From NCBI GenBank assembly GCA_020466095.1, contig CM035807.1:51550752-51614751 (forward strand): a DNA stretch of 64,000 nt, in the 5' to 3' direction. Each line of letters starts with the position of its first letter. Within the stretch, counting starts at the first letter, position 1. The notes beneath the pieces were generated by a model that saw only the letters and a program-made list of their open reading frames with translations, did not search any database and was not told where the DNA came from. Below, piece by piece: positions 19,118 to 49,200 of the stretch. Position numbers and translations under genes: made by a program. Origin of the DNA: Chlorops oryzae (Eukaryota > Arthropoda > Insecta > Diptera > Chloropidae).

Positions 19118-20985
19118 GGGTAATTTATGGATAGAGAGTACGAAGATCTAAAGCAAAAGTTCAGTGTCTGAAGGGCATGCGACTACATTACAGGCAGAAG
19201 CGTGGGAATTAATAAGGGAAATAAACCCGAATAGAGAATTTTTGACTTTAATAAAAAATCAGTAATCAGTTAGAAAGGCCAGTTTTTCCGATAGATACAG
19301 CTAGAAGGACAGTGAGCGCTACCAACAATTCCGCAAAAAGCAAAATAGAAGATCTAGAAGAGACAGTTGCGCATTTACAGAAGAGTTGCAAAGATCTGAG
19401 GGAGAGAATAGCTACCGAAACTCGATTAATAGAAGAGGCGGAGGACGAAAACGGAACCTTAAAAAAAGCTCTCCAATCAGCAGTAGGGGGTGAACTTTCA
19501 GAATCCATAGAAAAGATAAAGCAGATCTTAAGGAAAAGGAAAAAGAAATCCGTTTCCTAAAAATAGAAGTAGGAAATCTAAAATGAGAGTTAAGGGTAGT
19601 CTGCGGCACGTCCCCACTTCCGACAAGAACGGAGTCACTCCTTTTGAACAGCACAACGATCGAAGTTCCGCCAAAAAACAGGCTAACGATGGCGACTCCA
19701 CAAAACATGAAAGATATCATCAGAATAGTCCACGATGTAGTCCCAAGTTTTACGGGAACTAGAGGGCCTGGATTCAACGACGAGGTGTCAAAATTCATCG
19801 AAGGCCTCGCTCTACTAAATGAGACTATCGAAAGAGCAAATGTAACACAGGCAATACGCATAGTCAAACAAAAACTAATGGGGCCGGCATACCCGCAGAT
19901 CAACAACAGAAAATTTGAAACATTGGAGGAACTCCAAGAATATGTAAGACGAACCTATGCAACAATCCGGACATTAGAGGACATTCGAGCGGAAATAATA
20001 AACGCTAAACAACAAAAGGACGAGTCCGCGGCCTTGTTCGGAGGAAGAATGGAAACATACCTCAATGAAGCGGAAATGATAATTTCCCAAAGATGGGGGG
20101 CGCAGAAGCAAAAGCACTACTGTGGGAATACGACGACCTAGCAAAAAAACATTTCATATTAGGGCTTAAAAGGGAATCCTTACAACAATCACTGGTAAAC
20201 ATGGGTGACCTAAGCCTAAAGGATATGATAGAGGCAGCAGAGGATTCGGAAAATATACTTAAATCAGGCCGAATCTATATAAACACAATAAGCTCCGCAG
20301 CCGAAGAAAGGTTGGTGTGTGCTTTTTGTTAACAACCAGGCCACATGAGAGATGTGTGCATAAAGAGGAGAAACACAGCATACTGCACGTGTGGTGTATT
20401 TGGGCATGACGAGACCCCCGGGTGCCGGAGGGACAATCCAAGACGGACAGAAGATAGAAATCCCGCTAGAGCTGAATGCACTCACCGTGGGAAGGCGTTC
20501 CATAAGGAGGAAGACTGTTGGGCGAAGTTAGTCGCCCTATTCTGCGAAAAATGCCAAGTGAAGGGCCATAAGACCAATAAGTTCTGTAGTAGAGAGAAAA
20601 GGCAACAGAATGTGCAGCCACGGCCTACACCGAACGACCAGAGAAGGCCTAACGAAACCAGCCAAATACAGTGCTTCATGTGCAGAGAAATAGGACATAT
20701 GGCCCGAAATTTCCCACAACAGACACAGGGTATCCAGGCACTCCCCGCACCTCACACGGGAAACGCCCAGCGGCCTAGTCTCGGCCGGTAGACTGGAATG
20801 CCCAAAAAGAAGATATAGAACGGCCAAACCCTGCCCTGGGGAACAGCCGGTAACCATGGGCAGGAGTAGGGGAAGAGCCAGGGTGCAAAGAAGATCTTTT
20901 GGACAGCCTAGGCGCAGAACGACGGGAAGAGCCGGGGGTGCCAAGAAGTGCCTTTGGACAGCCTGGGAGCAAGAAAATTAAGACC
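19118..20985 (+). pseudogene. gypsy Gag with coiled coil and several zinc knuckles, broken
   Basis: The frame is broken early by a stop and again near 19258-19267, where AATCAGT is present twice in tandem. The 19312-19560 piece is a charged heptad region (IEDLEETVAHLQKSCKDLRE). 19644-20141 and 20093-20332 carry the capsid-like part (FTGTRGPGFNDEVSKFIEGL, MGPAYPQI, ALFGGRMETYL) and are separated by a frameshift at a run of six G near 20095. A stop (TAA, about 20330) interrupts the first knuckle (CAFC, then QPGHMRDVC). Further Cys/His groups follow: YCTCGVFGHDETPGC, ECTHRGKAFHKEEDC, CEKCQVKGHKTNKFC and CFMCREIGHMARNF. The last lacks its final Cys and others deviate in spacing. The 3' end holds two degenerate 53-bp repeats (20872-20978). 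Confidence 0.78.
20872..20978 (+). repeat. Two imperfect 53-bp tandem repeats in gag tail
   Basis: GGAAGAGCC then GAAG... and TTTGGACAGCCT recur at a 53-bp spacing (20872-20923 and 20925-20978). In the coding frames this gives Arg/Gly-rich peptide, typical of the basic tail of nucleocapsids. Confidence 0.55.
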
Positions 20986-21382
20986 AAAATGGGGAAAATC
21001 GATAAGACAGATTCCGATAGAAGAGATCGAAAATGAAATAAAAGAAAAAATGAACATAGGCATTGGTCAGGAGACTAATGCAATGAAATCACGAAAAAAG
21101 GGCAAACGAGTGACTATTAAACACACAGTCAAGGTGTTTGTATACCCAATATGCGTGATGGAAGCTGCCGGGACAAAGGAAAAGTTGGAAAAATGGAAAG
21201 AAAACGCAAGATGAATAAAAAGGTTGTATATCAATGTATGGCTTATGTTTTTCTTTCTTCTAAGCGAGCTTCTCCAAATCACGAAACAACTTTTGGCGGT
21301 TGAATACAATGGGCCAAAAGGAGATGAATGCGTTGAATTATCCTGCTAACAGGCTATCAACGACGAAATCGGAATAGCGGAT

Positions 21383-22558
21383 TTGCAAGACAAAGTAGAA
21401 CCGGATTGGATCGCTGTAACTGCGACTCGAGAGGACGATGCGTACATCGAAATACCCTGTAGCCAGGCTATCGACGGCAGCATCACCCTATTGATCGATT
21501 CAGGAGCAGAGGCAAGTCTGGTAAAAAGAGAGATACTGATAGAATACGTTCCAAAAAACCGGAAGGATACGAAGTCCTTGAGAGGAGCGTTTGGAGGAAA
21601 TTTGACTACGATTGGATCAATAAAAGTGAAGCACAAGGCAATTCCAGCTTTGGAGATGGTGATGCACGTGGTGCCACGAAATAGCAGCCTGCAAGCAGAT
21701 GGACTCCTGGGGAGGGATATGCTCTGGAACAGGACTATACTAGATTCAATCAGAAAGGAGTTGATCTTCAAAGAAAAAGGCAATCTGGTGGCCACGATGC
21801 CTTTGAGGATAAGAGGAGAGAAAATAGATATTGCAGAGACGATTAGAGTCCCACCAAGATCCACGAGGATAGTACGCATAAATACAGGGCTACTCACGGA
21901 GGAAGTAGTCGTGCAGAAGAAACAATTAGCCGAACATATATATATTGGGGAAAGCCTCACGAAACCCAAAAACGGTATTGGGTTTGCGACAATACTTAAC
22001 GCGTCTGAAAAAATCACCGAAATAGGGGAAGGAATGGAAGTAAAATACTCACTCTTGAGAGATTACAGGATCCTAAGCATTTCGGAAATAAATGCAATCG
22101 ATAGTACCCAAGCAGACGAGAGGATGAATCTGCTAACAAATTCCCTAAAGTTAGAGCAGAATTTGAACGAAGAGGAAAGACAGTCCATAGTCGCAGTATG
22201 CAAGGACTATGCCGATGTATTTCACCTGAAGGGCGACAAATTGAGTTACACCAGTGTGCTCAAACATGAAATATCTACAGAAACAGGAAAGGCACCAATA
22301 AATATAAGACAGTATCGCTTGCCGGAGGCGCACAAGGAAGAAATAAATAAGCAGGTGGAAGAAATGCTGGATCAAGGCATAATCGCTCCAAGCAAATCGC
22401 CATGGAACGCGCCAATTATCCTAGTCCCGAAAAAAACAGGATCGGACGGGAAAAAGAAATGGCGATTGGTAGTAGATTTCCGCCAATTGAACGAAATCAC
22501 AATGAAACAGGTATTCCCAATACCACGAATCGATGAGATCCTCGACCAACTGGGTTGA
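21383..22558 (+). CDS. gypsy Pol part 1: protease and RT N-terminus
   Basis: Open for 391 codons. ITLLIDSGAEASLVKRE is the retropepsin active site with D-S-G. LQADGLLGRDMLW is the flap/hydrophobic ILGRD-type block. RT begins with INIRQYRLPEAHKEEINKQV, then GIIAPSKSPWNAPIILVPKK and WRLVVDFRQLNEIT. It ends in DEILDQLG followed by TGA (22556-22558), where the family reads straight on into FSTLDLASGYHQ, seen a few bases later in the same frame. The nonsense codon truncates RT before its catalytic residues. Confidence 0.85.
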   Translation: MQDKVEPDWIAVTATREDDAYIEIPCSQAIDGSITLLIDSGAEASLVKREILIEYVPKNRKDTKSLRGAFGGNLTTIGSIKVKHKAIPALEMVMHVVPRNSSLQADGLLGRDMLWNRTILDSIRKELIFKEKGNLVATMPLRIRGEKIDIAETIRVPPRSTRIVRINTGLLTEEVVVQKKQLAEHIYIGESLTKPKNGIGFATILNASEKITEIGEGMEVKYSLLRDYRILSISEINAIDSTQADERMNLLTNSLKLEQNLNEEERQSIVAVCKDYADVFHLKGDKLSYTSVLKHEISTETGKAPINIRQYRLPEAHKEEINKQVEEMLDQGIIAPSKSPWNAPIILVPKKTGSDGKKKWRLVVDFRQLNEITMKQVFPIPRIDEILDQLG

Positions 22559-23179
22559 AGTCGATATTTTAGTACCTTAGATCTGGCAAGCGGATATCAC
22601 CAGGTACTGGAAGATGAAAAAGCTAGAGGGAAAACAGCTTTCAGAACACTTTTAGGACACTACGAATTCGTGCGAATGCCATTTGGACTCTCTGGAGCGC
22701 CGGCGACTTTTCAACGAGTCATGAACAGCGTCCTAACCGGCCTACAAGGAGTCGATTGTTTCGTCTATTTGGATGATATTGTCATTTATGGGAGCAACCT
22801 AGAGCAACATGAACTCAGACTCCGAAAGGTACTGCAAGCTCTGCGAGAAAACAAACTTAAAAATCAGACGGAAAAATGTCAGTTTTTGCGGAAGGAAGTA
22901 GTCTATTTGGGTCACAAGTGTTCCGACCAAGGCGTCCGACCAGACCCTGGGAAAGTAGAATGCGTGGAAAAATTCCCAATTCCCAAAAACAAGAAGGAAT
23001 TGCAGTCTTTCTTGGGATTAGCAAACAATTACAGAAAGTTCATACCGAACGCAGCGGAACTTTTTATGCCATTAACATCTCTACTGAGAAAGGACAGCGA
23101 ATTCGTGTGGACAGAGAAATGCGAAAATGCGGTAGGAGAAATTAAAACTGCAATCACCAACCCACCGCTATTGAAATAA
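22559..23179 (+). pseudogene. gypsy RT catalytic part
   Basis: In frame with part 1 after the TGA. FSTLDLASGYHQVLEDE contains the first catalytic Asp, FVRMPFGLSGAPATFQRVMN the fingers/palm motif, and CFVYLDDIVIYG the YLDD box. The thumb and connection follow (FLGLANNYRKFIPNAAE) down to the stop TAA at 23177-23179. Except for the two flanking stops it looks well kept. Confidence 0.88.
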
Positions 23180-23775
23180 GCCGATTTTACTAAGCCATTC
23201 CTGTTAATAACGAATGCAAGTAACGAAGCGCTAGGAGCGGTACTCTCACAAGGCGAGCCGGGCGACGATCAGCCAATTGCGTTTGCAAGTCGAGCTTTAA
23301 GCGCAACGGAAAAAGGTACTCGACAATCGAAAAGGAATTCCTAGCCATTGTATGGGCGACAAAAAATTTCGTTCCTACCTTTTAGGCCGCCCATTTACGG
23401 TTTACATAGACCACAAACCCCTAAAGGGCATAGCAAATTCGAAAGATCAGACATACCGATTGGCCAGATTCCGCCATCAACTCTCGGAAATTGAGTTCGA
23501 AATTTGTTACAAAGCAGGAAAAGCGAACATGAATGCTGACGCGCTAAGTCACTTACCGTATGAAAGTGCTATGATATCAGTAACAACGAGGTCAAAAACA
23601 AACAGTAGACAAGAGGAGTCGAAAAGAGAGGAAGAAATTACACCCAAACACGAGGAAGAAGACATCCATCGCAGCACAACCGCACGAGGAGGACTTAGCG
23701 GTATTTTTGACCAACAGAAAGGATATCGACGAGGTCCTCAGAAATTTTCACGACGGACCATTAGGAGGACATAAA
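23180..23775 (+). pseudogene. gypsy RNase H (copy 1)
   Basis: FTKPFLLITNASNEALGAVL with the first RNase H Asp replaced (TNAS where the family has TDAS), then QPIAFASRALSATEK and a frameshift at about 23310-23345. In the 23352 frame follow KKFRSYLLGRPFTVYIDHKPL with the conserved D-H-K-P-L, FEICYKAGKANMNADALSHL (last Asp) and a charged linker. A further frame change occurs before the integrase at about 23707. Confidence 0.85.
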
Positions 23776-24750
23776 GGGGCACTGAAGACATATTTCCGCA
23801 TCCGACGGCAGTATAAATGGAGCGGCATGCAAAGACAGATCAGGGATTATGTAAAGAATTGCAAAAAATTCCAACAAAACAAGTGTTCCAAGGTGGAGAG
23901 GATGCCGATGGTACGATGGATGGTATATATGGATATAGTGGGACCCCTGCTGGAATCGTCACGAGGGAACAAATACATTCTGACCTTTATAGACGATTTT
24001 TCGAAATTCTTCACCTGCACAGCAATCGCTGATGGAGAAGCCGCAACAGTGGCAAGAGCGTTTTTCAATGAAATAATATCAAAACTCTAAATACCTAAAG
24101 TCTTGATTACCGACAAAGGCGCAAATTTCACATCAAAATTGTTTAACGAAGTATGCAAAATTCTTGGAATAAGGAAGTATCAAACCTCTCGTTACCACTC
24201 GCAAGATAATGGGGCTCTCGAAAGGAGCCACCGACCACTTGCAGAATTTCTCCGAAATTTTGTGAACGAAGTTGGCACAAATTGGGACGAGTGGCTGCAC
24301 CATGCTATGCACGTACAGAACAACACAGTCCACTCATCAACCAAACAAACGCCCTGCAAGATACTTTTTGGATTTGAAGCCGATATTCCATTTAAACTAA
24401 AAGGAACACCGGAGCCACTGTATAATACCGACGATTTCTCGAAAATATTGAAATATCAAATACAGCGCACCCATCATTTAGTACGAGAGAACCAAAATAT
24501 AGCCAAAGAAAAATCCAAGCGATACTACGATAAGGGCTCAAAAGTCAGAGAATTTCAGACGGGAGACAAAGTGTGGCTAAAGAACCAAAACCGAAAAAAT
24601 AAATTCTTACCCATTTGGGAAGGCCCTTATTCGATTGTATCAGTTCCAACGCCGGTGAATGTAAAATTTAAAATCAAAGGAAAAGAAAAAACATTCCACC
24701 GAAACCTAATAAAGCTACATTATCAAAAAGAACAGCAAACAAAACAATAA
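23707..24750 (+). pseudogene. gypsy integrase (copy 1)
   Basis: Zinc-binding domain: FHDGPLGGHKGALKTYFRI supplies the His pair, but the Cys pair reads NCKKFQQNK, so the second Cys is Phe. Core: YMDIVGPLLESSRGN (first Asp), then TAA at 24088-24090, ITDKGANFTSKLF (second Asp) and GALERSHRPLAEFL (Glu), 35 residues apart (DD35E). C-terminal GPY/F block: IWEGPYSIVSVPTPVNVKF. The frame ends at 24750. The stop and the lost zinc ligand argue against activity. Confidence 0.87.
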
Positions 24751-25098: not shown

Positions 25099-25760
25099 AC
25101 AAACGCGATTTCAAGCAGAATAAATAAAATAAATTGGAATTTGAATAGAGTCAATGAGAAAAATTGGCTGAACGACGACCATATCAACTCCCTGCTGCCA
25201 TGGTTGATGAGAAAGGCTAACAACAAGAAGATTCACGTATTCGACACACACTTTTATGCATGCGCAACCGCATCAAAGGAAAACTCACTGCCGGAACAAA
25301 TACGATTGAACGGTTTTCTAAAAAGGGTGAACATCTTCGAGTGCGAAAGCCTAGTGATCCCAGTACACGAGCGAAACCACTTGATGCTGGCGATCGTAAC
25401 ATGGCCAGCGATGTACGTACTGGACTCCCTTAAACCGCACGACGCAAAGAAAATCGCGGAAAAAATAAGGTCAATTGTGCAATGGGAGGCGAAAAGAAAA
25501 TGCTCAACAGACACCACGGAGTACTCGGAAAACAAAAAATGTAAATGATTGCGGAATATATTTGCTGCGGTTTGCGGAAAAATACCGAGACGTCGTAAGA
25601 GCAGGACGAGCCTTTTTGCCCCGAGACGCCCTTGTGGAGGAAAGTAAAATTTCAAGAATATTCCTCGACCAGTTAATAACGGAGCAAAAGATGACTCGCG
25701 CAGAATGGAATGAGACGGAGGAAGAGCGAAAGTTCTTGCAGAATGAAATTCAAAGAATTT
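25099..25760 (+). pseudogene. Ulp1/SENP-like (C48) cysteine protease ORF in gypsy element, copy 1
   Basis: The frame is open from 25099 to 25548 and then continues in another frame to 25760 after an indel of one or two bases around 25480-25545. The first part has NWLNDDHINSLLPWLMRKAN, matching the 'WLnDe.Inf...l' opening of Ulp1 domains, then VFDTHFYACAT, VNIFECESLVIPVHERNHLM (catalytic His region, HW replaced by HL) and YVLDSLKP (Asp). After the shift comes NVNDCGIYLLRFAEKY, the Q..N.DCG block with the nucleophile Cys; copy 1 has Lys where copy 2 has Gln. Family role: Ulp1/SENP enzymes cut SUMO or Nedd8 isopeptide bonds, and adenain-like relatives process viral proteins. No in-frame ATG precedes the domain, so splicing or a non-AUG start would be needed. 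There is no such gene in the ordinary gypsy layout. The frame break is present in both copies. Confidence 0.78.
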
Positions 25761-25957
25761 GAGCAAATTGTAAGCCAGGGAATCGAAAGTACTGTAAAAT
25801 AATATATAAGACTAAAATATATTCCGTATTTATCTCACGCAAAGGGGATGTTGGGTATAAACAATTTAAATGCGCAATAACATATCACCATGCAAATTAA
25901 TAAATAAAAAAAAAATGGGAGAGATAGAGCGTTCTTTTAAGAATATTTTCAAAACCA
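25761..25957 (+). other. Spacer between Ulp1-like ORF and env (copy 1)
   Basis: About 200 bp of AT-rich sequence; copy 2 equivalent is 30985-31181. No gene seen. Confidence 0.4.
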
Positions 25958-26737
25958 TTGTTTTATTTGTCCAGAGGAAATAGGTGGAGAATAGTGGAGG
26001 AGCCTTTGTGGAAGCGACAAAGGGCGAAGATGTTTGTGCGAATTCCGTTTCCTTTTTCTTTTCAGGAAAAAATAATCATCTTGGTGTTAATAACAACAGT
26101 CAACTACGGACGACTTCAAATAACGCCAGTAGACGAACAAGGAGGATTTGTCCAGATCCACATAAAAGAAACAGAAATTATAGAGGATTTCTACACCGTG
26201 CTACATGTGATACACCCAGCGGAAATTCTGAAGGTTATCAACACAATCAATGAGTATGTCGACACGGTGGAAATAAAAAACAGAGAACTGCTGCTGGCAG
26301 AAATTAGAACCATCAGATCAAAACTTAGCTCCTCAATACCAAGAGAGAATGATCGATCTCGAAGAGGACTTCTGAACGCGGTAGGTACGGCCGCCAACTG
26401 GATATTTGGCGTCATGGACGACGACGACCGAAAAGAAATCCTAGAGCACCTGACATTGGCAGACCAGAATAGCCATAACGCCATAAAAGGGTTGAACGAA
26501 CAAATATACATAAACGATTTTTTCAACGAAACAATTTCAACGATAAAAAGGACGATGGAAAAGGATCTGGGCATGGTTAACGAAGTATTCACCACAGTAA
26601 AAAGGCAAAACGATGAAATCACTAAGCATGTCCGTTATAGACCAGATGCTAAAACTAAAAAGTTAGAGGAAAAGGTCAACATCATCCAGGACAGTATTCA
26701 TCAGCAAAAAACGGGGTGGCGCATCCCAACATACTAA
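25958..26737 (+). pseudogene. env-like fusion protein, N-terminal part (copy 1)
   Basis: Baculovirus-F/errantivirus-type envelope protein. A strong polypyrimidine tract ending CAG at 26065 could be a 3' splice site. It falls exactly on a codon boundary and is followed by a hydrophobic stretch (KIIILVLITTVNYG) that fits a signal peptide. ENDRSRRGLLNAVGTAANW is a furin-type cleavage site followed by the presumed fusion peptide. A heptad-rich region follows. The last 30 codons diverge from copy 2 by indels where the sequence quality drops. The C-terminal half is only traceable as degraded fragments after 26740. Confidence 0.8.
26064..26065 (+). promoter_or_regulatory. Candidate env 3' splice site
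   Basis: A run of 14 pyrimidine-rich bases (TTTCCTTTTTCTTTT) precedes CAG/G. Env of gypsy-type errantiviruses is made from a spliced RNA, so this is where an acceptor is expected. The copy 2 equivalent is 31288-31289. Confidence 0.55.
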
Positions 26738-27299
26738 CGACGGAGGAGATAGAAAGATTCAAATGGACTATTACAAAGTAAAACTAATCGAGGGGAGTGA
26801 TGTATACGTAAACAAAGCACTTTCGCAGTAAAAATCCCAAGAAATTCCGGAAATAGAAGTAAAATGGTTACCCCCTCTTCCAAACAAAAAATACAAGAAA
26901 ATAATAGAAAGGGACGAACATATCACAACAATAGTAACCAACTTTAGTTTCACGGAAAATTCAGTACGGAAGGAATTGAAAAAGAGTAGAAAATGCGTTT
27001 TTTTAAACATGTAGATCCGTATAATAACAAAATCTCCATACAATACATAAGAATCAACACTACTAATAAAAAACGGGAGGCAAACGCAGTCTCACACGAT
27101 TGCGACACGCGCAACATTACACTTAACAAGAACGTACTTATCTCCTTCTCCAATTGCACCATAGTCATTAAGGCCAAAATTTTACGAATACTCAGATTAT
27201 AATGAAGAAAAATATTTTTACCCAGAAGACGAAAAACACAATATCAAATTCAACGACACCATCAACTTCGAAGAAATTCAAAAAAAAGTTTAAAAACCG

Positions 27300-28326
27300 A
27301 AAAACTCATTGAAGAATTAACATTACACAGAAATTTTTATAAAAAGAAACCATTATCCTGGAGGGTATTTTTGTTTCTGCTTGAAACAAAACTTTTTCCG
27401 CCTGGCTTGAAAGGCCATCCAAAAAAAAAGTTTTACACTTTTTGAATTTGAGAAAAAGGGGAAGAACCTTAAAAAAAAACAACGCAAAAAATTTTCCTTT
27501 TCTTTTAAAACAGTTTTCTCATAAAAAAAACCAAACAGGCCTGGGAAAAAAGGAAAAGTTTATATAACCCGCACCAACAGGGGTTTCCGGCGCCGCTAAC
27601 TCCCATTAAATAAAAAAAGCATAACCAATTTTGTTTTTAATTCATTTTTTTTCTCCTTTTTTAATTTTTTTATTTCAAGCCCAGGAGACCAAACGGTTGG
27701 CCCAATTGAATTGGGCCGGTCCCCCAAGAGGCTGAAAGTGGGGCCACGGGAACCGCCAAAAACCCTCCATAGGGACCGAAAACATCCAATCGGGCTGTGC
27801 GGGAAAGGGCCATTCCCCTAATTTTGTACTTAAAAGTCAACGAAACGCAACAAAAGGTTCGCCAAAAAACACAAAAAAAAAAAACGGCAACCAAAATTGA
27901 CGGCAAAATTTTTTTTTTTGTGGCAAAAATTTTTTTTTTCCCTCTTTGACCCGCCATACGCAAAAACACCGGACCATGTCAAAACAAAAAAAAACCCAAA
28001 AAGGGGGAAAACTTTGCAAAGAAAATGTGTTCACAGGAAAAAAAATCAAGTGAAAATTTCCAAAAGCTGGGATTTTTTGGGGTTCTTTATATTTTTTGGA
28101 AATGGCACCAAAACCCACTTCTTAAAGGGAAAATTTGCTGGTAAAATTTTTGAAAGCTTCCGTTCAAACCCATTTTTGTAATAAAAAAAAAAAGGGTTAT
28201 TTGGGACAAATAAATTACAAAATTTGAAAAATTATGAACAAAAAAAACCCCTTATTTCCTAAATGGGTTATTTACATCTTTAAATAAAGCCCTTTTTTTA
28301 AGGGGCAAAAAATGAATTTTTTTTTC
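27300..28326. other. Error-rich sequence, probable assembly artefact
   Basis: Homopolymer-rich, with runs of A, T, C and G inflated. Recognisable phrases align in order with clean sequence at 33880-34950, for example AGGGCCATTCCCCT and AATTTTGTACTTAAAAG. Open frames here (27670-28181) are meaningless. The tract ends abruptly at 28326, where clean RNase H sequence restarts. Confidence 0.85.
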
Positions 28327-28996
28327 TGTGGACAGAGAAATGCGAAAATGCGGTAGGAGAAATTAAAACTGCAATCACCAACCCACCGCTATTGAAATAA
28401 GCCGATTTTACTAAGCCATTCCTGTTAATAACGAATGCAAGTAACGAAGCGCTAGGAGCGGTACTCTCACAAGGCGAGCCGGGCGACGATCAGCCAATTG
28501 CGTTTGCAAGTCGAGCTTTAAGCGCAACGGAAAAAGGTACTCGACAATCGAAAAGGAATTCCTAGCCATTGTATGGGCGACAAAAAATTTCGTTCCTACC
28601 TTTTAGGCCGCCCATTTACGGTTTACATAGACCACAAACCCCTAAAGGGCATAGCAAATTCGAAAGATCAGACATACCGATTGGCCAGATTCCGCCATCA
28701 ACTCTCGGAAATTGAGTTCGAAATTTGTTACAAAGCAGGAAAAGCGAACATGAATGCTGACGCGCTAAGTCACTTACCGTATGAAAGTGCTATGATATCA
28801 GTAACAACGAGGTCAAAAACAAACAGTAGACAAGAGGAGTCGAAAAGAGAGGAAGAAATTACACCCAAACACGAGGAAGAAGACATCCATCGCAGCACAA
28901 CCGCACGAGGAGGACTTAGCGGTATTTTTGACCAACAGAAAGGATATCGACGAGGTCCTCAGAAATTTTCACGACGGACCATTAGGAGGACATAAA
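28327..28996 (+). pseudogene. gypsy RNase H (copy 2)
   Basis: Same sequence as copy 1, including the TAA (28398-28400) and the frameshifts. It starts in mid-domain at 28327, immediately after the noisy tract, so the preceding RT is absent on this side. Confidence 0.85.
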
Positions 28997-29971
28997 GGGG
29001 CACTGAAGACATATTTCCGCATCCGACGGCAGTATAAATGGAGCGGCATGCAAAGACAGATCAGGGATTATGTAAAGAATTGCAAAAAATTCCAACAAAA
29101 CAAGTGTTCCAAGGTGGAGAGGATGCCGATGGTACGATGGATGGTATATATGGATATAGTGGGACCCCTGCTGGAATCGTCACGAGGGAACAAATACATT
29201 CTGACCTTTATAGACGATTTTTCGAAATTCTTCACCTGCACAGCAATCGCTGATGGAGAAGCCGCAACAGTGGCAAGAGCGTTTTTCAATGAAATAATAT
29301 CAAAACTCTAAATACCTAAAGTCTTGATTACCGACAAAGGCGCAAATTTCACATCAAAATTGTTTAACGAAGTATGCAAAATTCTTGGAATAAGGAAGTA
29401 TCAAACCTCTCGTTACCACTCGCAAGATAATGGGGCTCTCGAAAGGAGCCACCGACCACTTGCAGAATTTCTCCGAAATTTTGTGAACGAAGTTGGCACA
29501 AATTGGGACGAGTGGCTGCACCATGCTATGCACGTACAGAACAACACAGTCCACTCATCAACCAAACAAACGCCCTGCAAGATACTTTTTGGATTTGAAG
29601 CCGATATTCCATTTAAACTAAAAGGAACACCGGAGCCACTGTATAATACCGACGATTTCTCGAAAATATTGAAATATCAAATACAGCGCACCCATCATTT
29701 AGTACGAGAGAACCAAAATATAGCCAAAGAAAAATCCAAGCGATACTACGATAAGGGCTCAAAAGTCAGAGAATTTCAGACGGGAGACAAAGTGTGGCTA
29801 AAGAACCAAAACCGAAAAAATAAATTCTTACCCATTTGGGAAGGCCCTTATTCGATTGTATCAGTTCCAACGCCGGTGAATGTAAAATTTAAAATCAAAG
29901 GAAAAGAAAAAACATTCCACCGAAACCTAATAAAGCTACATTATCAAAAAGAACAGCAAACAAAACAATAA
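28928..29971 (+). pseudogene. gypsy integrase (copy 2)
   Basis: Identical to copy 1 over the whole translated length: same His pair, missing second Cys, internal TAA (29309-29311), DD35E residues and GPY block. Total identity at this length indicates a very recent or artificial duplication rather than two old copies. Confidence 0.87.
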
Positions 29972-30321
29972 CCCTTGCCTTACGGCAATAAAAAAAATTT
30001 TTATATTTTCTCCAAGTAAATTACAATTCAATGATTTAAACCACCGAAAGCATAAATCAGTACTTAATATGCCAACCAATGCATTTACACAATTCAAGGT
30101 GTATCAAATTCTTCGACCAAAGGAGAAGAGGCGTTTGTTTTTCTTTATTTTCACACACAATTTCAGTTCGATCGTCTGTGATTGGAATCGAACTCACGTC
30201 AGCTAAAAATTCTTGCAATCAATAAAACCCTTAACCTATCAACGTGTTCGGCGGAAGAAGAAATTTTTCAATACAACAAGTTAAACCACCGAAGACAATA
30301 AACACGATAAGTAAACTCTAA

Positions 30322-30986
30322 ACAAACGCGATTTCAAGCAGAATAAATAAAATAAATTGGAATTTGAATAGAGTCAATGAGAAAAATTGGCTGAACGACG
30401 ACCATATCAACTCCCTGCTGCCATGGTTGATGAGAAAGGCTAACAACAAGAAGATTCACGTATTCGACACACACTTTTATGCATGCGCAACCGCATCAAA
30501 GGAAAACTCACTGCCGGAACAAATACGATTGAACGGTTTTCTAAAAAGGGTGAACATCTTCGAGTGCGAAAGCCTAGTGATCCCAGTACACGAGCGAAAC
30601 CACTTGATGCTGGCGATCGTAACATGGCCAGCGATGTACGTACTGGACTCCCTTAAACCGCACGACGCAAAGAAAATCGCGGAAAAAATAAGGTCAATTG
30701 TGCAATGGGAGGCGAAAAGAAAATGTCCAGCAGACACCACGGAGTACTCGGAAAACAACAAAATGTAAATGATTGCGGAATATATTTGCTGCGGTTTGCG
30801 GAAAAATACCGAGACGTCGTAAGAGCAGGACGAGCCTTTTTGCCCCGAGACGCCCTTGTGGAGGAAAGTAAAATTTCAAGAATATTCCTCGACCAGTTAA
30901 TAACGGAGCAAAAGATGACTCGCGCAGAATGGAATGAGACGGAGGAAGAGCGAAAGTTCTTGCAGAATGAAATTCAAAGAATTTGA
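30322..30986 (+). pseudogene. Ulp1/SENP-like (C48) cysteine protease ORF, copy 2
   Basis: The first frame runs to 30768 and the second frame from about 30705 to 30986. The motifs equal copy 1, but the active-site block reads QQNVNDCGIYLL, with the Gln that forms the oxyanion hole in Ulp1 enzymes retained. I count 15 residues from the proposed catalytic His to the Asp, close to the 16-17 seen in known family members. The C-terminal tail after the Cys block is acidic and ends in EEERKFLQNEIQRI. A one-base frame break lies between Asp and Cys blocks (30705-30760). Whether it is real, a programmed shift or a base error cannot be told from sequence alone. Confidence 0.8.
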
Positions 30987-31181
30987 GCAAATTGTAAGCC
31001 AGGGAATCGAAAGTACTGTAAAATAATATATAAGACTAAAATATATTCCGTATTTATCTCACGCAAAGGGGATGTTGGGTATAAACAATTTAAATGCGCA
31101 ATAACATATCACCATGCAAATTAATAAATAAAAAAAAAATGGGAGAGATAGAGCGTTCTTTTAAGAATATTTTCAAAACCA

Positions 31182-32009
31182 TTGTTTTATTTGTCCAGAG
31201 GAAATAGGTGGAGAATAGTGGAGGAGCCTTTGTGGAAGCGACAAAGGGCGAAGATGTTTGTGCGAATTCCGTTTCCTTTTTCTTTTCAGGAAAAAATAAT
31301 CATCTTGGTGTTAATAACAACAGTCAACTACGGACGACTTCAAATAACGCCAGTAGACGAACAAGGAGGATTTGTCCAGATCCACATAAAAGAAACAGAA
31401 ATTATAGAGGATTTCTACACCGTGCTACATGTGATACACCCAGCGGAAATTCTGAAGGTTATCAACACAATCAATGAGTATGTCGACACGGTGGAAATAA
31501 AAAACAGAGAACTGCTGCTGGCAGAAATTAGAACCATCAGATCAAAACTTAGCTCCTCAATACCAAGAGAGAATGATCGATCTCGAAGAGGACTTCTGAA
31601 CGCGGTAGGTACGGCCGCCAACTGGATATTTGGCGTCATGGACGACGACGACCGAAAAGAAATCCTAGAGCACCTGACATTGGCAGACCAGAATAGCCAT
31701 AACGCCATAAAAGGGTTGAACGAACAAATATACATAAACGATTTTTTCAACGAAACAATTTCAACGATAAAAAGGACGATGGAAAAGGATCTGGGCATGG
31801 TTAACGAAGTATTCACCACAGTAAAAAGGCAAAACGATGAAATCACTAAGCATGTCCGTTATCATGACCAGATGCTAAAACTAAAAAGTATAGAGGAAAA
31901 GGTCAACATCATCCAGGACAGTATCTCATCAGCAAAAAACGGGGTGGCGCATCCCAACATACTAACGACGGAGGAGATAGAAAGATTCAAATGGACTATT
32001 ACAAAGTAA
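31182..32009 (+). CDS. env-like fusion protein, N-terminal part (copy 2)
   Basis: 275 open codons; clean version of the 25958 frame. Features in order: upstream segment before the candidate splice acceptor (31288-31289), signal-peptide-like hydrophobic stretch (about residues 37-50), furin-type RSRR site (about residue 137) with GLLNAVGTAANWIFG behind it, and an acidic DDDD turn. A long helical heptad region follows to KSIEEKVNIIQDSI. It ends at a stop (32007-32009) in the middle of the ectodomain. Membrane fusion for cell entry is the known role of the family. The gene here is broken and further split by a mariner. Confidence 0.8.
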   Translation: MFYLSRGNRWRIVEEPLWKRQRAKMFVRIPFPFSFQEKIIILVLITTVNYGRLQITPVDEQGGFVQIHIKETEIIEDFYTVLHVIHPAEILKVINTINEYVDTVEIKNRELLLAEIRTIRSKLSSSIPRENDRSRRGLLNAVGTAANWIFGVMDDDDRKEILEHLTLADQNSHNAIKGLNEQIYINDFFNETISTIKRTMEKDLGMVNEVFTTVKRQNDEITKHVRYHDQMLKLKSIEEKVNIIQDSISSAKNGVAHPNILTTEEIERFKWTITK

Positions 32010-32586
32010 AACTAATCAGAGTGGGAGTGATGTCATACGTAAACAAAGCACTAGTAATCGCAGTAAAAATCCCAAGAAACTTCCGGAAAATAGAAGTAAA
32101 ATGGTTACCCCCTCTTCCAAACAAAAAATCACAAGAAAATAATAGAAAGGGACGAACATATCACAACAATAGATAACACAACTTATAGTTTCACGGAAAA
32201 TTCAGTACGGAAGGAATTGAAAAAGAGTAGAAAATGCGTTTTTCTTAACACATGTAGACTCCAGTATAATAACAAAATCTCCATACAATACATAGACGAA
32301 TCAACACTACTAATAAAAAACGGGAGGCAAACGCAGATCTCACACGATTGCGACACGCGCAACATTACACTTAACAAGAACGTACTTATCTCCTTCTCCA
32401 ATTGCACCATAGTCATTCAAGGCCAAAATTTTACGAATACTCAGATTATAATGAACGAAAAATATTTTTACCCAGAAGACGAAAAACACAATATCAAATT
32501 CAACGACACCATCAACTTCGAAGAAATTCAAATAAAAAGTGTTAAAAACCGAAAACTCATTGAAGAATTAACATTACACAGAAATA

Positions 32587-33874
32587 TTAGGTGTAGTAAA
32601 AAGAAATCCATTATTTTTCCAATAGATGGCGTTATTTATCTGCATCTCGCGTTGTATAAGTCCGATCGTGTTCCGCTAGGGGGCATTAGAAAGATGACAG
32701 TTCCTACTAAAAAAGCTTTTTTGACACTTTTTTGATTGATTGATTCAGTTTTGTTTGAGAGCTTGTCAAAGATGGACATCAGCAAAGAGAAAATTCGCTA
32801 CATTTTACAGTTTTTCTTCGATAAGGGAGAAAACGCAAGCCAGGCGGCTGAAAATGTGAATAGCGTTTATGGACCTGATACTGTAACAGCCAATCATGCG
32901 CAATTTTGGTTTCGTCGATTCCGTTCCGGTAACTTCGATGTCAAGGATGCACCACGCACTGGAAGGCCAATTGTCGAAAATGTCCATAAATTCATGGAAA
33001 TTATCGAGTCCGACCGTCATGTTAGCACTGTTTCGATTGCAAAAGAGCTAAAGATTGCACAAAAAACCGTTTGGAACCATTTGAATAAGGCTGGATACAC
33101 AAAGAAGCTCGATGTATGGGTGCCACACGAGTTAACGCAAAAAAACCTCATAGACCGAATTTCCATCTGCGAATCGCTGCTGAACCGCAACAAAATCGAC
33201 CCATTTCTGAAGCGGTTGGTGACTGGTGATGAAAAGTGGGTCACTTACGACAACGTCAAGCGAAAACGGTCGTGGTCGAAACACGGTGAACCGGCGGAAA
33301 CGGTGGCCAAGCCAGGATTGACGGCCAGGAAGGTTTTGCTGTGTGTTTGGTGGGATTGGCAGGGAATTATCTACTTTGAGCTGCTCCCATACGGCAAAAC
33401 TCTTAACTCGGAACTCTACTGTCAACAATTGGACCGTCTGAAGGAAGCAATCGCCCATAAGCGGCCAGCTTTGGCCAATAGGAGAGGAATTGTGTTCCAT
33501 CAGGACAACGCCAGGCCACACACATCGATAGTGACTCGCCAGAAGCTCCGGGAGTTTGGTTGGGAGGTTCTTCTGCATCCACCTTATAGTCCGGACCTGG
33601 CACCAAGTGATTACCATCTGTTCCTGTCCATGGCGAACAATTTTGCTGGTGAAACATTCGCTTCAAGAGAGGCTTCTGAAATTCGACTGTCTCAATTTTT
33701 TGCTAATAGGAACGAGGGCTTCTATGAGAGAGGCATAATGAAATTACCTTTAAAATGGCAACAAGTTATCGAACAAAACGGCGCATATTTGACCTAAATC
33801 GGGTCATTCTAACTATCTTAAATAAAGCCCTCAATTTAATGCAAAAATAATGGATTTCTTTTTACTACACCTAA
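32587..33874 (+). mobile_element. mariner element copy 2, complete
   Basis: Ends TTAGGTGTAG...CTACACCTAA with the same 32-bp inverted repeats as copy 1, flanked by TA (32585-32586 and 33875-33876), 1288 bp. Inserted in env. The corresponding env in the noisy copy 1 (about 27330) lacks it. Confidence 0.95.
32772..33797 (+). CDS. mariner transposase, apparently intact
   Basis: 341 codons from the ATG at 32772 (MDISKEKIRY). The 12 extra codons upstream begin with TTG and are probably not translated. N-terminal paired-type HTH (FFDKGENASQAAENV, then second HTH SIAKELKIAQKTVWNHL), WVPHELTQKN linker, VTGDEKWVTYD (first Asp), HQDNARPHTS (second Asp) and YSPDLAPSDYHLF (third Asp, 34 residues on). 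It ends in IEQNGAYLT. Length, spacing and motif order are all as expected for a full mariner transposase (usual size about 345). It catalyses cut-and-paste transposition at TA sites in the nucleus. With intact inverted repeats, this copy could be autonomous. Confidence 0.93.
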   Translation: MDISKEKIRYILQFFFDKGENASQAAENVNSVYGPDTVTANHAQFWFRRFRSGNFDVKDAPRTGRPIVENVHKFMEIIESDRHVSTVSIAKELKIAQKTVWNHLNKAGYTKKLDVWVPHELTQKNLIDRISICESLLNRNKIDPFLKRLVTGDEKWVTYDNVKRKRSWSKHGEPAETVAKPGLTARKVLLCVWWDWQGIIYFELLPYGKTLNSELYCQQLDRLKEAIAHKRPALANRRGIVFHQDNARPHTSIVTRQKLREFGWEVLLHPPYSPDLAPSDYHLFLSMANNFAGETFASREASEIRLSQFFANRNEGFYERGIMKLPLKWQQVIEQNGAYLT

Positions 33875-34171
33875 TATATCATATGGCATAAGCACCACGC
33901 TCGTCATAGCAGCAATGGTAGGAGTCATATTCCTGTGTTTCTGTCTCCGAAACAAAAGCGTTAATATCAAAAACAGCCTGGAACTCCTGGAAAGGCCACC
34001 ACAAAGAAGAACAAGTATTCGGACACTTAATAAGCAATTTAGAGAAAAAGCGACGAACGCAACGACACTTAAAAAAAAACAAGCAGCAACAATTGTTCTC
34101 TTTTCAAAAGTAACGAACACGACACCACTCACTATGTCTCATGAAACAAAAATCTACAAACAGCGCACATA

Positions 34172-35009
34172 AGGAAAAACAGGAAGAAGAAAAAAAATAT
34201 ATATATATACCCGCACCAGACAGGGGTCCGGCGCGCAGAAACTAACGTCCACTTAAATAAAAAAAAGCATAACCGATATTTTGTTTTTAATTCTATTTTT
34301 TTTTCTCTTTTCTTTTTTCATATTTTTTTTGTATTTCTTATTTTTAGTCCCAGGATTCTACGCTAAACTGGTAGTGCCCAATCCGTGAGAGGTTGGGCAC
34401 GGTCCCCCTAAGAGGCATGAAAGCTGGCGGCCGACGAGGAAGCCGACCAAGATCATACCTGGCGTCCACCTCAGGCACCGAAAACATCCACATCGGGTCT
34501 AGCATGCTGTGGAAGAGGGCCATTCCCCTCAATTTTGTACTTAAAAGAAATCAACGAAGACGCAACTATATATAGGAAAATTCAGACACAAAAAACACAA
34601 AAAAAAAAAAAACGAGCAACCAATTTTTATTGACGAAGTCAAAATTTATTTCCCACACATATTTTCGTGGCAAAATTTTTTTTCCTCTCTTTGATCCCAA
34701 TGACACACGTGCACGCACAAAACACGCGGACACATGTGCAAAACAAAAAAAAAAAAAACCAACAAAAAGGGTAAGGAAAAAGCATTTGCAAGCAAAATGC
34801 ATGCTTGCACATGGTTAATAATTATAATCGAAGTAGAAAATTTCCAATAATGCATCGACGGTTTAATATTTTTTTTGTTTGTGTCTTCTACACTGCAATA
34901 TTTTGGCAAATCAGCACAAAACCTCAACCTTCATTCAAGGGGGGAAGGGGTAATAGCATAGTAATAATATAAAGAATCATGCTCCGTGCAAAGCCTATAG
35001 AATAATATA

Positions 35010-35041
<32 letters not shown>

Positions 35042-35093
35042 TAATTCGAAGTTCACAAATAAGCGATTCACTTAACATTTTTCGACTCCAAAA
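34172..35093 (+). other. Gypsy 3' non-coding region, first part
   Basis: No gene. Includes a (TA)n run, CCCGCACCAGACAGGGGTCC, AT-rich tracts and a 25-plus base poly-A run (about 35008-35035). A degraded version is found at about 27540-28320. Confidence 0.5.
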
Positions 35094-35095
35094 TA

Positions 35096-36383
35096 TTAGG
35101 TGTACTAAAAAGAAATCCATTATTTTTCCAATAGATGGCGTTATTTATCTGCATCTCGCGTTGTATAAGTCCGATCGTGTTCCGCTAGGGGGCATTAGAA
35201 AGATGACAGTTCCTACTAAAAAAGCTTTTTTGACACTTTTTTGATTGATTGATTCAGTTTTGTTTGAGAGCTTGTCAAAGATGGACATCAGCAAAGAGAA
35301 AATTCGCTACATTTTACAGTTTTTCTTCGATAAGGGAGAAAACGCAAGCCAGGCGGCTGAAAATGTGAATAGCGTTTATGGACCTGATACTGTAACAGTC
35401 AATCATGCGCAATTTTGGTTTCGTCGATTCCGTTCCGGTAACTTCGATGTCAAGGATGCACCACGCACTGGAAGGCCAATTCTCGAAAATGTCGATAAAA
35501 TCATGGAAATTATTGAGTCCGACCGTCATGTTAGCATTGTTTCGATTGCAAAAGAGCTAAAGATTGCACAAAAAACCGTTTGGAACCATTTGAATAAGGC
35601 TGGATACACAAAGAAGCTCGATGTATGGGTGCCACACGAGTTAACGCAAAAAAACCTCATAGACCGAATTTCCATCTGCGAATCGCTGCTGAACCGCAAC
35701 AAAATCGACCCATTTCTGAAGCGGTTGGTGACTGGTGATGAAAAGTGGGTCACTTACGACAACGTCAAGCGAAAACGGTCGTGGTCGAAACACGGTGAAC
35801 CGGCGGAAACGGTGGCCAAGCCAGGATTGACGGCCAGGAAGGTTTTGCTGTGTGTTTGGTGGGATTGGCAGGGAATTATCTACTATGAGCTGCTCCCATA
35901 CGGCAAAACTCTTAACTCGGAACTCTACTGTCAACAATTGGACCGTCTGAAGGAAGCAATCGCCCATAAGCGGCCAGCTTTAGCCAATAGGAGAGGAATT
36001 GTGTTCCATCAGGACAACGCCAGGCCACACACATCGATAGTGACTCGCCAGAAGCTCCGGGAGTTTGGTTGGGAGGTTCTTCTGCATCCACCTTATAGTC
36101 CGGACCTGGCACCAAGTGATTACCATCTGTTCCTGTCCATGGCGAACAATTTTGCTGGTGAAACCTTCGCTTCAAGAGAGGCTTCTGAAATTCGACTGTC
36201 TCATTTTTTTGCTAATAGGAACGAGGGCTTCTATGAGAGAGGCATAATGAAATTACCTTTAAAATGGCAACAAGTTATCGAACAAAACGGCGCATATTTG
36301 ACCTAAATCGGGTCATTCTAACTATCTTAAATAAAGCCCTCAATTTAATGCAAAAATAATGGATTTCTTTTTACTACACCTAA
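35096..36383 (+). mobile_element. mariner element copy 3, complete
   Basis: 1288 bp, flanked by TA (35094-35095 and 36384-36385). The left inverted repeat has one change (TTAGGTGTAC instead of TTAGGTGTAG); the right one is standard. Confidence 0.95.
35281..36306 (+). CDS. mariner transposase, apparently intact
   Basis: 341 codons from ATG. Differs from copy 2 by a handful of residues (for example VTVNHAQ for VTANHAQ, ILENVDKIM for IVENVHKFM, SIVSIAK for STVSIAK). The D,D34D residues, WVPHEL and SPDLAPSDYHLF motifs are all unchanged. The clean frame and close similarity suggest recent arrival. Confidence 0.93.
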   Translation: MDISKEKIRYILQFFFDKGENASQAAENVNSVYGPDTVTVNHAQFWFRRFRSGNFDVKDAPRTGRPILENVDKIMEIIESDRHVSIVSIAKELKIAQKTVWNHLNKAGYTKKLDVWVPHELTQKNLIDRISICESLLNRNKIDPFLKRLVTGDEKWVTYDNVKRKRSWSKHGEPAETVAKPGLTARKVLLCVWWDWQGIIYYELLPYGKTLNSELYCQQLDRLKEAIAHKRPALANRRGIVFHQDNARPHTSIVTRQKLREFGWEVLLHPPYSPDLAPSDYHLFLSMANNFAGETFASREASEIRLSHFFANRNEGFYERGIMKLPLKWQQVIEQNGAYLT

Positions 36384-36385
36384 TA

Positions 36386-37143
36386 TATGAAAAGGAAGTC
36401 AGCAAGCCTAATTAAGAATTATATAAAAAGCATACATAAGCAATTTTTATTGTCACTCTCAAAAATGTCGAGTTATTGATTGTACCTCAGACGAATTTAA
36501 AAAAAAAATCTCAAAAAAAAAGGGTTTTAATGAAGTACTAAGAATTGAATTAGAAAAAAATATATATTTAAGTATTTTCATTTACAATTAAAAAAATCAT
36601 TACAAATACTGATATATTAGAAACTGTACGAATTCCAAAAAAAAAAAATATATATATATAGTAGCAAAGTTTTCGATCCAATGAAAAAAAATATATATAA
36701 AAGAAAACTAATATATATCACGGTTTGAAGGAAAATATGAATTAAAATTCATAAAATATTGAATACCTATTAATTCTATTATAAAATAAAAAGTAAAGTA
36801 AAACATACATATGAGAATATTGTTAATATCGAAATGTTAAAAAACAAATTGAGCAAACATAACAATAGTTTTAAGGTAGAAACTACAATTCTAAATCTTC
36901 AAATCACTGAGATCCTACACCGGAACAGCAACAATCAAGACACAACAACATTTACAGCATCAGCATCTATCGGCGCAAGCAGCACAACAACAAGCGAATG
37001 ATACAATAAGTTCGCCTATTGCAACCACAGCAACAGAGTCAAACACACCAGCACCATCAAAAGCATTATCAGACAAAAACAGTGTGGCCGAAACTATTTT
37101 ATAAACAGTCACGATGCTCGTGACATGCCGAGGAGGGGAGGGA
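36386..37143 (+). other. Gypsy 3' non-coding region with polypurine tract
   Basis: AT-rich, then a CAA-rich stretch (36910-37080), then GCCGAGGAGGGGAGGGA at 37127-37143. That is a purine tract immediately before the right LTR, as required for plus-strand priming. No gene seen. Confidence 0.7.
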
Positions 37144-38221
37144 TGTTGTGAGTCAAAAAGCGTCACGTCACACGCTAACGTAACGCTACCAGTACTAGTA
37201 TCAACGTCACACTATCAGCACTAAGCCAAAAGAAGCGCAATAAAAGAATGTAGAACAAACGAATGCAGCGACACCGCTTCAGCTCGAAACCTAACACCTT
37301 GGACAACAACAGCACGAGCGAGCGTGAAATCGAACGCCATAAACAAGACAACAACGGTCGGCGCTCGAAGTCAAAGAAAGCAGAAACAAGGAAAAGACAC
37401 AGTAACCAAAGAAGGCAACAACAACAATACATGCTCGCAACAACAAACAAACCATCGATGGCAATGCCAACTGATAATCGATCGTTCAAGGCCACCGATC
37501 GAAAGGGAAAGCAGGCAGACGAAAGTCGAAAGAACACGAGCCGCCGAGTCAGCATGTGGACGACACACAAACAAGGGATGTGTGCGGCATGGATTGTCAT
37601 GTTCTTATTGCACTTCATTACGTCTTTTGTGTGTGCATTTGGCTTGCCCTAAATTGTATGTATGTCAAATGGCTTTGGGGTCATTTGCGTATGCAGCTCA
37701 TTGTCAATATACATACGCTACACCTAAACAAGAATGGCACGATGAATAAATAGAAAGCAACAGCACTTACGCAATCGCCGAAAACGCCGAAATGCAGAAT
37801 AGACGGTGACCGAGGGACGCTTGCGGGGAGGATAGCTCTAGAGGAAAACTAAGACGCCAGCAACTATCGATATTGCTAACGGAGCAATATTGGAATATAA
37901 AAGCGAAGTTCGATCTACGAATAGGGGAAGTGCACTCCGAGTACGAAGCAGTAAAGAAGATCTCAACTTTGGTGCACCTACTTACGAGCTAGGACGACAA
38001 AGTGTGGATCTCAGTGTTAGCAAGGAAATAAGGCAGTAAAGTAACCTAAAGTAGAAACTTAAAAAGTATCTGAATGAACTTTAATAAATAAACTGAATAA
38101 ACTTGAATAAATAAACAATTATACTAAATACGAACGAAATAAAAGAATGTTTTATTTGGAAAATATACAAGTTCATCGTTGGCGCTTTACAGAGGTCCTT
38201 CTCCCCAGTAGATACGCAACA
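37144..38221 (+). repeat. 3' LTR of gypsy element
   Basis: 1078 bp, same length and ends as the left LTR, about 25 substitutions apart. LTRs are identical at insertion, so this divergence means the insertion is old compared with the near-identical pol duplication inside it. Confidence 0.92.
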
Positions 38222-48087: not shown

Positions 48088-48089
48088 TA

Positions 48090-49197: not shown

Positions 49198-49200
49198 TAT

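What the first reader, a model, noticed from the sequence alone, without database searches (positions are those of the whole stretch)
25099..30986. Ulp1/SENP-like cysteine protease ORF carried by a gypsy env-type retroelement
Seen: between integrase and env, both copies of the duplicated segment encode a stretch opening with WLNDDHINSLLPWL. A His in PVHERNHL, an Asp in VLDSL and a Cys in QNVNDCGIYLL follow (copy 2; copy 1 has K for Q). Known: this is the order of the C48 (Ulp1/adenain) catalytic residues; such enzymes cleave SUMO/Nedd8 conjugates or process viral proteins. Inference: the element captured or evolved a deconjugating or processing protease, possibly against host SUMO-dependent piRNA silencing. 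I do not know of a described gypsy/errantivirus element with this layout. The frame is broken between the Asp and Cys blocks in both copies.
Basis: partly seen in the sequence, partly recalled or inferred. Interest (0 to 1): 0.88.

Follow-up and report, generated by a model that had tools for sequence, protein, structure and literature searches.

The report
Endogenous retroviruses carrying a SUMO protease
A large group of virus-like jumping elements in this (probably insect) genome carries its own gene for an enzyme that looks able to strip the regulatory tag SUMO from host proteins; the copy in this window is broken, but intact copies exist elsewhere in the same genome.

Summary
In detail: a C48 (Ulp1/SENP) domain lies between integrase and env of an env-bearing Ty3/gypsy element (Pfam 5e-7, SENP1 2.5e-9). 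The window copy is dead: it and one relative (L009) share a frame-breaking 34-nt deletion between Asp and Cys. The window's 'two copies' are probably one element assembled twice.

The gene is no one-off. The same genome holds 228 listed element C48 places (capped lists). Of 40 fetched loci, 27 keep one open frame with HW, Asp, Gln and Cys. Position follows the clade: A, INT-ULP-env (72 of 89 env matches); B, env-ULP in sense; C, env-ULP antisense before the 3' LTR (15 of 28 env matches have a ULP, all 15 antisense). One locus shows ULP in another gypsy lineage.

dN/dS between subfamilies is 0.08-0.26 (env 0.08-0.18). The AlphaFold model matches SENP7, SENP1 and Ulp1. Best reading: a long-kept accessory de-SUMOylase of endogenous retroviruses, possibly against SUMO-dependent piRNA silencing (target untested). 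Ten paper searches found Ulp1 in DNA transposons, not in an LTR element.

The parts
17529..18606 (+). 5' LTR (TGTTGTGAG...CAACA)
   Evidence: 97.6% identical to 37144-38221, K2P 0.0255
18611..18624 (+). primer-binding-site-like motif TGGCGCAGCCGGTA
   Evidence: read; likeness to the tRNA-Ser site of some errantiviruses is recalled, not tested
19587..20791 (+). gag remnants in three frames, zinc knuckle near the end
   Evidence: ORFs; weak zinc-knuckle hits below cut-off
21350..23179 (+). aspartic protease and reverse transcriptase, one in-frame stop
   Evidence: RVP E 0.0015 just below cut-off; RVT_1 1.7e-27
23584..24750 (+). integrase (two ORFs), copy 1
   Evidence: Integrase_H2C2 2.9e-18; rve and MLVIN_C below cut-off; 64% identical to P0001
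25099..25548 (+). ULP copy 1, N-terminal piece (W, His, Asp blocks)
   Evidence: PF02902 5.2e-7; SENP1 2.5e-9
25469..25762 (+). ULP copy 1, Cys block in another frame
   Evidence: read; no Pfam hit of its own
25928..26737 (+). env N-terminal part, copy 1
   Evidence: Baculo_F 1.1e-10
27357..28323 (.). noisy filler: low-identity version of 34187-34848 and of a mariner end; probable mis-join
   Evidence: 45 mismatches, 151 gap positions in 666 columns; highest homopolymer content of 22000-36999
28805..29971 (+). integrase, copy 2
   Evidence: ORFs identical to copy 1
30322..30768 (+). ULP copy 2, N-terminal piece
   Evidence: PF02902 6.1e-7
30657..30986 (+). ULP copy 2, Cys block in another frame
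   Evidence: PF02902 0.042, below cut-off; SENP7 0.28
31152..32581 (+). env, copy 2, up to the mariner insertion
   Evidence: Baculo_F 1.3e-10
32582..33879 (+). mariner insertion inside env
   Evidence: Transposase_1 4.9e-27; repeats
33880..34172 (+). probable env C-terminus (hydrophobic stretch and tail)
   Evidence: read; no Pfam hit above cut-off
35091..36388 (+). second mariner copy
   Evidence: 99% identical to the first
37131..37143 (+). polypurine tract AGGAGGGGAGGGA
   Evidence: read
37144..38221 (+). 3' LTR

Best explanation
The ORF is a decayed copy of an accessory gene of env-bearing Ty3/gypsy endogenous retroviruses. The gene encodes a Ulp1/SENP-type cysteine protease: a C48 catalytic domain plus a small basic C-terminal tail. 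SHOWN by sequence: the domain, its catalytic residues in relatives, a predicted SENP fold, its fixed place beside INT and env in many copies, purifying selection, and three clade-specific positions, one of them antisense. INFERRED: the protein is made from the provirus (spliced message in type A, an antisense promoter in type C), and removes SUMO from host nuclear proteins, most plausibly those that SUMO-dependent, piRNA-guided silencing needs. The enzyme class I hold at about 0.75, the silencing target at about 0.3; the number given covers an accessory de-SUMOylase acting on host conjugates.
For: C48 in 9 of 9 tested open frames of relatives, E 9.6e-14 to 4.2e-17, and 3.6e-21 for L052. 27 of 40 fetched loci keep one open frame with W, HW, Asp, Gln and Cys. 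His, Trp, Asp, both Gln and Cys invariant in 24 aligned proteins. Model mc7f053f8c60e (pLDDT 76.5) matches SENP7-SUMO2 at 1.6e-11, then SENP1, SENP5, SENP2, Ulp1. Layout: 31 of 34 loci, 72 of 89 env matches, 15 of 15 antisense in clade C. dN/dS 0.08-0.26 for ULP pairs with dS above 0.3. Among INT matches of at least 85% identity, env and ULP go together: both 28, neither 23, ULP alone 6, env alone 0 (Fisher 1.1e-10). SUMO machinery is needed for Piwi-guided silencing in fly ovary (PMC8733420, passages).
Against: No enzyme, expression or phenotype data. Many INT copies lack a listed ULP (23 of 57 at 85% identity or more; 63 of 70 below 78%), so it is not needed for every copy's spread; those lists are capped. 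One deletion could remove ULP and env together, so co-loss is weak evidence of a joint role. The closest ULP pairs have dN/dS of 0.13-0.85, as expected for dead recent copies. The window copy itself is broken. SUMO specificity over ubiquitin or NEDD8 rests on fold likeness alone.
Confidence: 0.55

Rival explanations
1. A second maturation protease: the C48 enzyme cuts the element's own Gag, Pol or Env, as Ulp1-like proteases of large DNA viruses do with their core proteins.
For: Fold hits include the monkeypox core protease (1.6e-5) and poxvirus and giant-virus proteins.
Against: SENP and Ulp1 structures rank far higher (1.6e-11). The element keeps an aspartic-protease domain (E 0.0015 with its DSGA motif). 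INT matches of at least 85% identity without env and ULP are common (23 of 57).
Confidence: 0.12
2. A deconjugating enzyme with another target or role: ubiquitin or NEDD8 instead of SUMO, or SUMO in entry, nuclear import, integration or antiviral signalling rather than transposon silencing.
For: Den1-Nedd8 and ubiquitin-bound XopD structures also match. ULP is lost together with env, which points to the infectious form rather than to silencing as such.
Against: SENP7, SENP1, SENP5, SENP2 and Ulp1 rank above them.
Confidence: 0.28
3. Host gene or pseudogene inserted by chance in this one element.
For: The host has a SENP1-like gene (L051, 162 bits).
Against: 228 listed element places and fixed layouts; the host exon is only 21-29% identical in tblastn to the element proteins tried.
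Confidence: 0.01
4. Passenger gene without function for the element.
For: Many copies are broken or lack it.
Against: dN/dS 0.08-0.26 between subfamilies, close to env 0.08-0.18; catalytic residues invariant in 24 proteins.
Confidence: 0.03
5. The window's tandem repeat 23102-27356 / 28324-32614 is a true duplication, not a mis-join (a separate question from the gene).
For: The window sits in a 118-Mb contig; a few substitutions separate the copies.
Against: Gap-rich differences after 26637 and filler that is a noisy version of clean sequence further on.
Confidence: 0.2

Closest known systems
SENP/Ulp1 SUMO proteases (peptidase C48; SENP7, SENP1, yeast Ulp1)
   Same: Catalytic residues, predicted fold, sequence similarity to SENP1 and SENP7
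   Different: Encoded by a retroelement; own basic C-terminal tail that has no PDB match; only distantly like the host SENP1
Errantiviruses (gypsy group, Ty3/gypsy with env)
   Same: LTRs, RT, INT, env matching Pfam Gypsy protein (8.9e-19 in L050) and Baculo_F
   Different: Extra C48 gene between INT and env, after env, or antisense after env. That the known ones lack it is recalled and not contradicted by the paper searches
Ginger1 DNA transposons and ULP-bearing Mutator elements
   Same: Ulp1 domain in a mobile element with a gypsy-like integrase (PMC2836005, passages)
   Different: There the domain is fused to the transposase of a cut-and-paste element with terminal inverted repeats; here it is a separate gene of an LTR element with RT and env
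Antisense additional ORFs of plant LTR elements (Grande, RIRE2, Retand)
   Same: Gene between pol and 3' LTR, antisense (PMC7264820, passages), as in type C
   Different: Those proteins have no clear similarity to known proteins according to that review; here it is a recognised enzyme, in an env-bearing element, also found in sense
Accessory genes of other Ty3/gypsy elements (MDG1-group sORF1 and sORF2; AlkB-like domain of orchid Gypsy)
   Same: Accessory ORFs beyond gag, pol and env with a proposed or tested role (PMC11952523, PMC9289625, passages)
   Different: Other proteins and positions; SUMO does not occur in either text, nor Ulp1 in the orchid one (Ulp1 was not asked of PMC11952523)

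Membership tests
Peptidase C48 (Ulp1/SENP) | Profile match above Pfam's gathering score | tested here: met
   Window N-terminal pieces 30.1 and 29.9 bits against 20.7; 9 of 9 relatives
Peptidase C48 (Ulp1/SENP) | His-Asp-Cys triad plus Gln in one open frame, in the window copy | tested here: not met
   Frame broken between Asp and Cys
Peptidase C48 (Ulp1/SENP) | His-Asp-Cys triad plus Gln in one open frame, in relatives | tested here: met
   27 of 40 fetched loci; which residues are catalytic is recalled from SENP1
Peptidase C48 (Ulp1/SENP) | SENP-type fold | tested here: met
   Predicted model only, best match SENP7 1.6e-11, TM 0.49/0.62
Peptidase C48 (Ulp1/SENP) | Cuts SUMO | not testable with these tools
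   Needs an enzyme assay
Errantivirus (Ty3/gypsy with env) | LTR pair, RT, INT in gypsy order | tested here: met
Errantivirus (Ty3/gypsy with env) | Gypsy-type (F-like) env downstream | tested here: met
   Baculo_F 1.1e-10 in the window; PF07253 8.9e-19 in L050 and 1.4e-12 in L048
Errantivirus (Ty3/gypsy with env) | Place in an RT tree with named errantiviruses | not tested
   No named reference sequences were fetched
Errantivirus (Ty3/gypsy with env) | Target-site duplication | tested here: not met
   Ten bases on either side of the LTR pair show none; the LTRs may come from different insertions or the site has decayed
Ginger1 DNA transposon | Terminal inverted repeats, INT fused to Ulp1, no RT or env | tested here: not met
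   LTRs, RT and env present, ULP in a separate ORF
Adenain-type protease (C5, Polinton and adenovirus) | C5 rather than C48 profile match | tested here: not met
   Pfam returns C48 and no adenain-type family for 9 of 9 frames

The most novel reading that the evidence does not exclude
An old de-SUMOylase gene has become a standard accessory gene of several endogenous-retrovirus clades of one insect lineage. It has been moved to three positions, including an antisense gene convergent with env, and is swapped between elements by recombination. It serves as a counter-defence that erases the SUMO marks which piRNA-guided silencing needs.
Probability: 0.3. Interest if true: 0.93.

Novelty: new variant of a known kind. 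Interest (0 to 1): 0.82.

Why it matters
Insect endogenous retroviruses are usually pictured with gag, pol and env (recalled). An enzyme gene kept under selection beside env, and in one clade antisense to it, would make these elements comparable to complex retroviruses with accessory genes. If the enzyme removes SUMO, it offers a concrete candidate for how such elements might resist SUMO-dependent silencing, testable with existing fly reporters (assay described in PMC8733420, passages). I know of no such effector in print; my searches were made, in an open-licence library only.

Tried and rejected
Led nowhere: protein search with the ULP piece (8 candidates, none at E 0.001). Viral-contig scans with ULP, INT and an INT alignment (9, 5 and 141 pattern matches, none confirmed). 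Genome-contig scan with INT (27 matches, none confirmed). Rfam (0 matches). An intron across the frame break was considered by eye and dropped when the deletion shared with L009 was seen. A chance host-gene insertion was rejected.

Limits: whole-genome lists are capped (scored of candidates: ULP 150 of 597, PF02902 150 of 513, INT 150 of 4355, env 149 of 1098, type C env 85 of 1230), so places without a ULP may be over-counted. The two window copies are among the counted rows. The chance figure ignores that ULP, INT and env places crowd in the same chromosome parts. Unanswered because the machine was busy: type C ULP search, tyrosine-phosphatase search, type D integrase search. Type D layout rests on L052 alone.

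Full report
WHAT IS IN THE WINDOW. The window is C2:51550752-51614751 of a 442-Mb assembly whose three fetched large contigs are 173, 118 and 97 Mb long. An LTR element runs from 17529 to 38221: LTRs 97.6% identical (K2P 0.0255), a PBS-like motif and a polypurine tract, gag remnants, PR, RT, INT and env. No target-site duplication is seen in ten bases on either side. Between INT and env lies a C48 domain broken into two frames.

THE 'DUPLICATION'. 23102-27356 and 28324-32614 are the same sequence. To 26637 the copies differ by four one-base indels and three substituted bases, the latter and one indel clustered at 25503-25535. Beyond that copy 1 has many short gaps. 27545-28063 aligns to 34187-34848 at 70% with 45 mismatches and 151 gap positions, and a noisy mariner end follows. 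Homopolymer content is highest there among the 30 bins from 22000 to 36999. I read this as unpolished filler at a mis-join (inference), so the two broken copies are not independent evidence.

THE BREAK. Between the Asp and Cys motifs, copy 2 and L009 have 114 nt and copy 1 has 113, against 148 in 14 of 18 other loci measured; 4 gave no motif pair. The window also has HL where L009 and the others have HW. The window holds a dead copy of a gene that is open elsewhere.

COPIES IN THE GENOME. The ULP piece finds 151 matches (597 candidates, 150 scored). PF02902 finds 150 places, all above its cut-off (513 candidates, 150 scored). Merged by hand these give 228 distinct places without the host gene. 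The best PF02902 place (162 bits) is a SENP1-like exon, probably the host gene (L051). The other 149 score 54-79 bits; 33 of them score 76.7-79.0, 14 with the same E-value, which suggests recent spread. One of these 33, L052, shows the end of a different gypsy-type integrase, then ULP in sense, and no match to four env queries in the 0.9 kb that follow.

LAYOUT. Of the 34 fetched loci with at least 48% ULP identity (L009-L042), 31 have INT upstream and env downstream on the same strand; L023 and L042 lack env and L033 lacks INT. By coordinates: env matches at least 58% identical to the window's env have ULP upstream in sense in 72 of 89, 17 have none listed, none downstream. Below 58%, 12 of 60 have it downstream in sense, 3 upstream, 45 none. 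With a type C env as query, matches of at least 58% identity have a ULP in 15 of 28, all downstream and antisense (14 places; three of them lie 2.9-3.4 kb off); at 49-58%, 6 of 12, all downstream in sense; below 49%, 1 sense, 1 antisense, 46 none. The chance of a listed ULP within 3.5 kb of a random point is 0.0036, higher in the crowded regions. L047 and L050, 97.8% alike over 5.4 kb, show INT, env, antisense ULP, then (in L047) polypurine tract and an LTR that starts TGTTGTGAG like the window's. L043 is a third, diverged case. L049 is a rearranged copy. L044 shows no INT or env in reach.

PROTEIN. Fifteen aligned ORFs share W..D, NHW, DSL, QQxN and CG. In 24, His, Trp, Asp, both Gln and Cys are invariant. 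In 27 of 40 fetched loci all these lie in one open frame. The 24-row AlphaFold model (pLDDT 76.5; residues 1-50 unreliable) matches SENP7-SUMO2, SENP1, SENP5, SENP2 and Ulp1 first; the poxvirus core protease comes at rank 36. Among viral models the best is an algal-virus protein (1e-8), then pox- and giant-virus proteins. A basic C-terminal tail, helix and three strands in the model, is shared weakly by types A to D: one Arg and one Gly invariant in 14 rows, and no PDB match. In the ULP tree types A, B and C are each one group (100/100, 100/100, 83/98); host SENP1 and L052 are very long branches that attract each other, so the number of captures is open. The env tree has the same groups, B and C on one side of a 100/100 branch from A.

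SELECTION AND LINKAGE. dN/dS of ULP pairs with dS above 0.3 is 0.08-0.26; the closest pairs give 0.13-0.85; many deeper pairs are saturated. Env gives 0.08-0.18 (5 pairs with unsaturated dS), the pol ORF that holds INT 0.04-0.125 (15 pairs). Among 57 INT matches of at least 85% identity: env and ULP 28, neither 23, ULP alone 6, env alone 0 (Fisher 1.1e-10). At 78-85% the same counts are 4, 15, 2 and 2; below 78%, 6, 60, 1 and 3, with env lists capped. One deletion could remove both genes. Pol and ULP distances conflict (L011/L023: dS 0.06 and 1.07; L022/L030: 0.18 and 2.04), so the ULP region has been exchanged between elements.

MECHANISM. Sequence shows that these elements have kept a SUMO-type protease gene. 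That it acts in the nucleus on silencing factors is inference from two facts in print: SUMO E1 and the E3 Su(var)2-10 are needed for silencing by the Piwi-directed SFiNX complex (PMC8733420, passages), and env-bearing insect elements co-evolve with piRNA clusters (PMC12992720, abstract). Polyprotein cleavage and other ubiquitin-like targets remain open.

PRINT. Ten paper searches gave Ginger1 and Mutator-type DNA transposons with Ulp1 (PMC2836005, passages), antisense ORFs of unknown function in plant elements (PMC7264820, passages) and other accessory ORFs (PMC9289625, PMC11952523, passages), but no LTR element with a C48 gene. The library holds open-licence papers only and Repbase is not in it, so an earlier description cannot be excluded.

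Noticed in passing
P0002 (found), compared with window 24971-25000: A relative's integrase (58% identical) runs on in one frame into the start of a protein-tyrosine-phosphatase domain (E 1.9e-11; PDB). The stretch before it resembles the window's INT-ULP spacer (7 of 10 residues; 0 of 2000 control segments reached 7, 48 reached 6; copy 2 of the window reaches 6). The slot after INT may take different host-like enzymes. One database entry only; it could be a chimera.
   Followed up: partly
L011, L015, L020, L022, L023, L030: Pol and ULP synonymous distances conflict between element pairs: recombination swaps the ULP region.
   Followed up: partly
L032:2875-4887: A natural 671-aa frame in which ULP runs into env (C48 1.9e-15, Baculo_F 1.2e-9).
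   Followed up: no
L052:1007-1972 and 32 further rows: ULP of 322 aa (306-325 aa in most similar rows) behind a different gypsy-type integrase; 14 rows with the same E-value suggest recent activity.
   Followed up: partly
G000, INT matches of about 72% identity: Many near-identical integrase copies in frames of up to 1309 aa, few with a listed ULP (7 of 70 INT matches below 78% identity): a recently spread form without it.
   Followed up: partly
G000: The strongest Baculo_F places lie in very long frames (up to 2497 aa), apparently env fused to pol in other elements; 79 matches, 72 of 1105 candidates scored.
   Followed up: no
C1, C2 and C3 of G000: ULP, INT and env places crowd in mid-chromosome parts of C1 and C2 and the distal half of C3, perhaps pericentromeric.
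   Followed up: no
window 2244-3538 (-), 32582-33879 and 35091-36388 (+): Three nearly identical mariner copies.
   Followed up: no
window 58379-58856 and 58991-59468: 478-nt inverted repeat, 98% complementary, 134 nt apart.
   Followed up: no
window 41321-41663 and 48068-49923: A 101-nt tandem repeat and a cluster of inverted and direct repeats.
   Followed up: no
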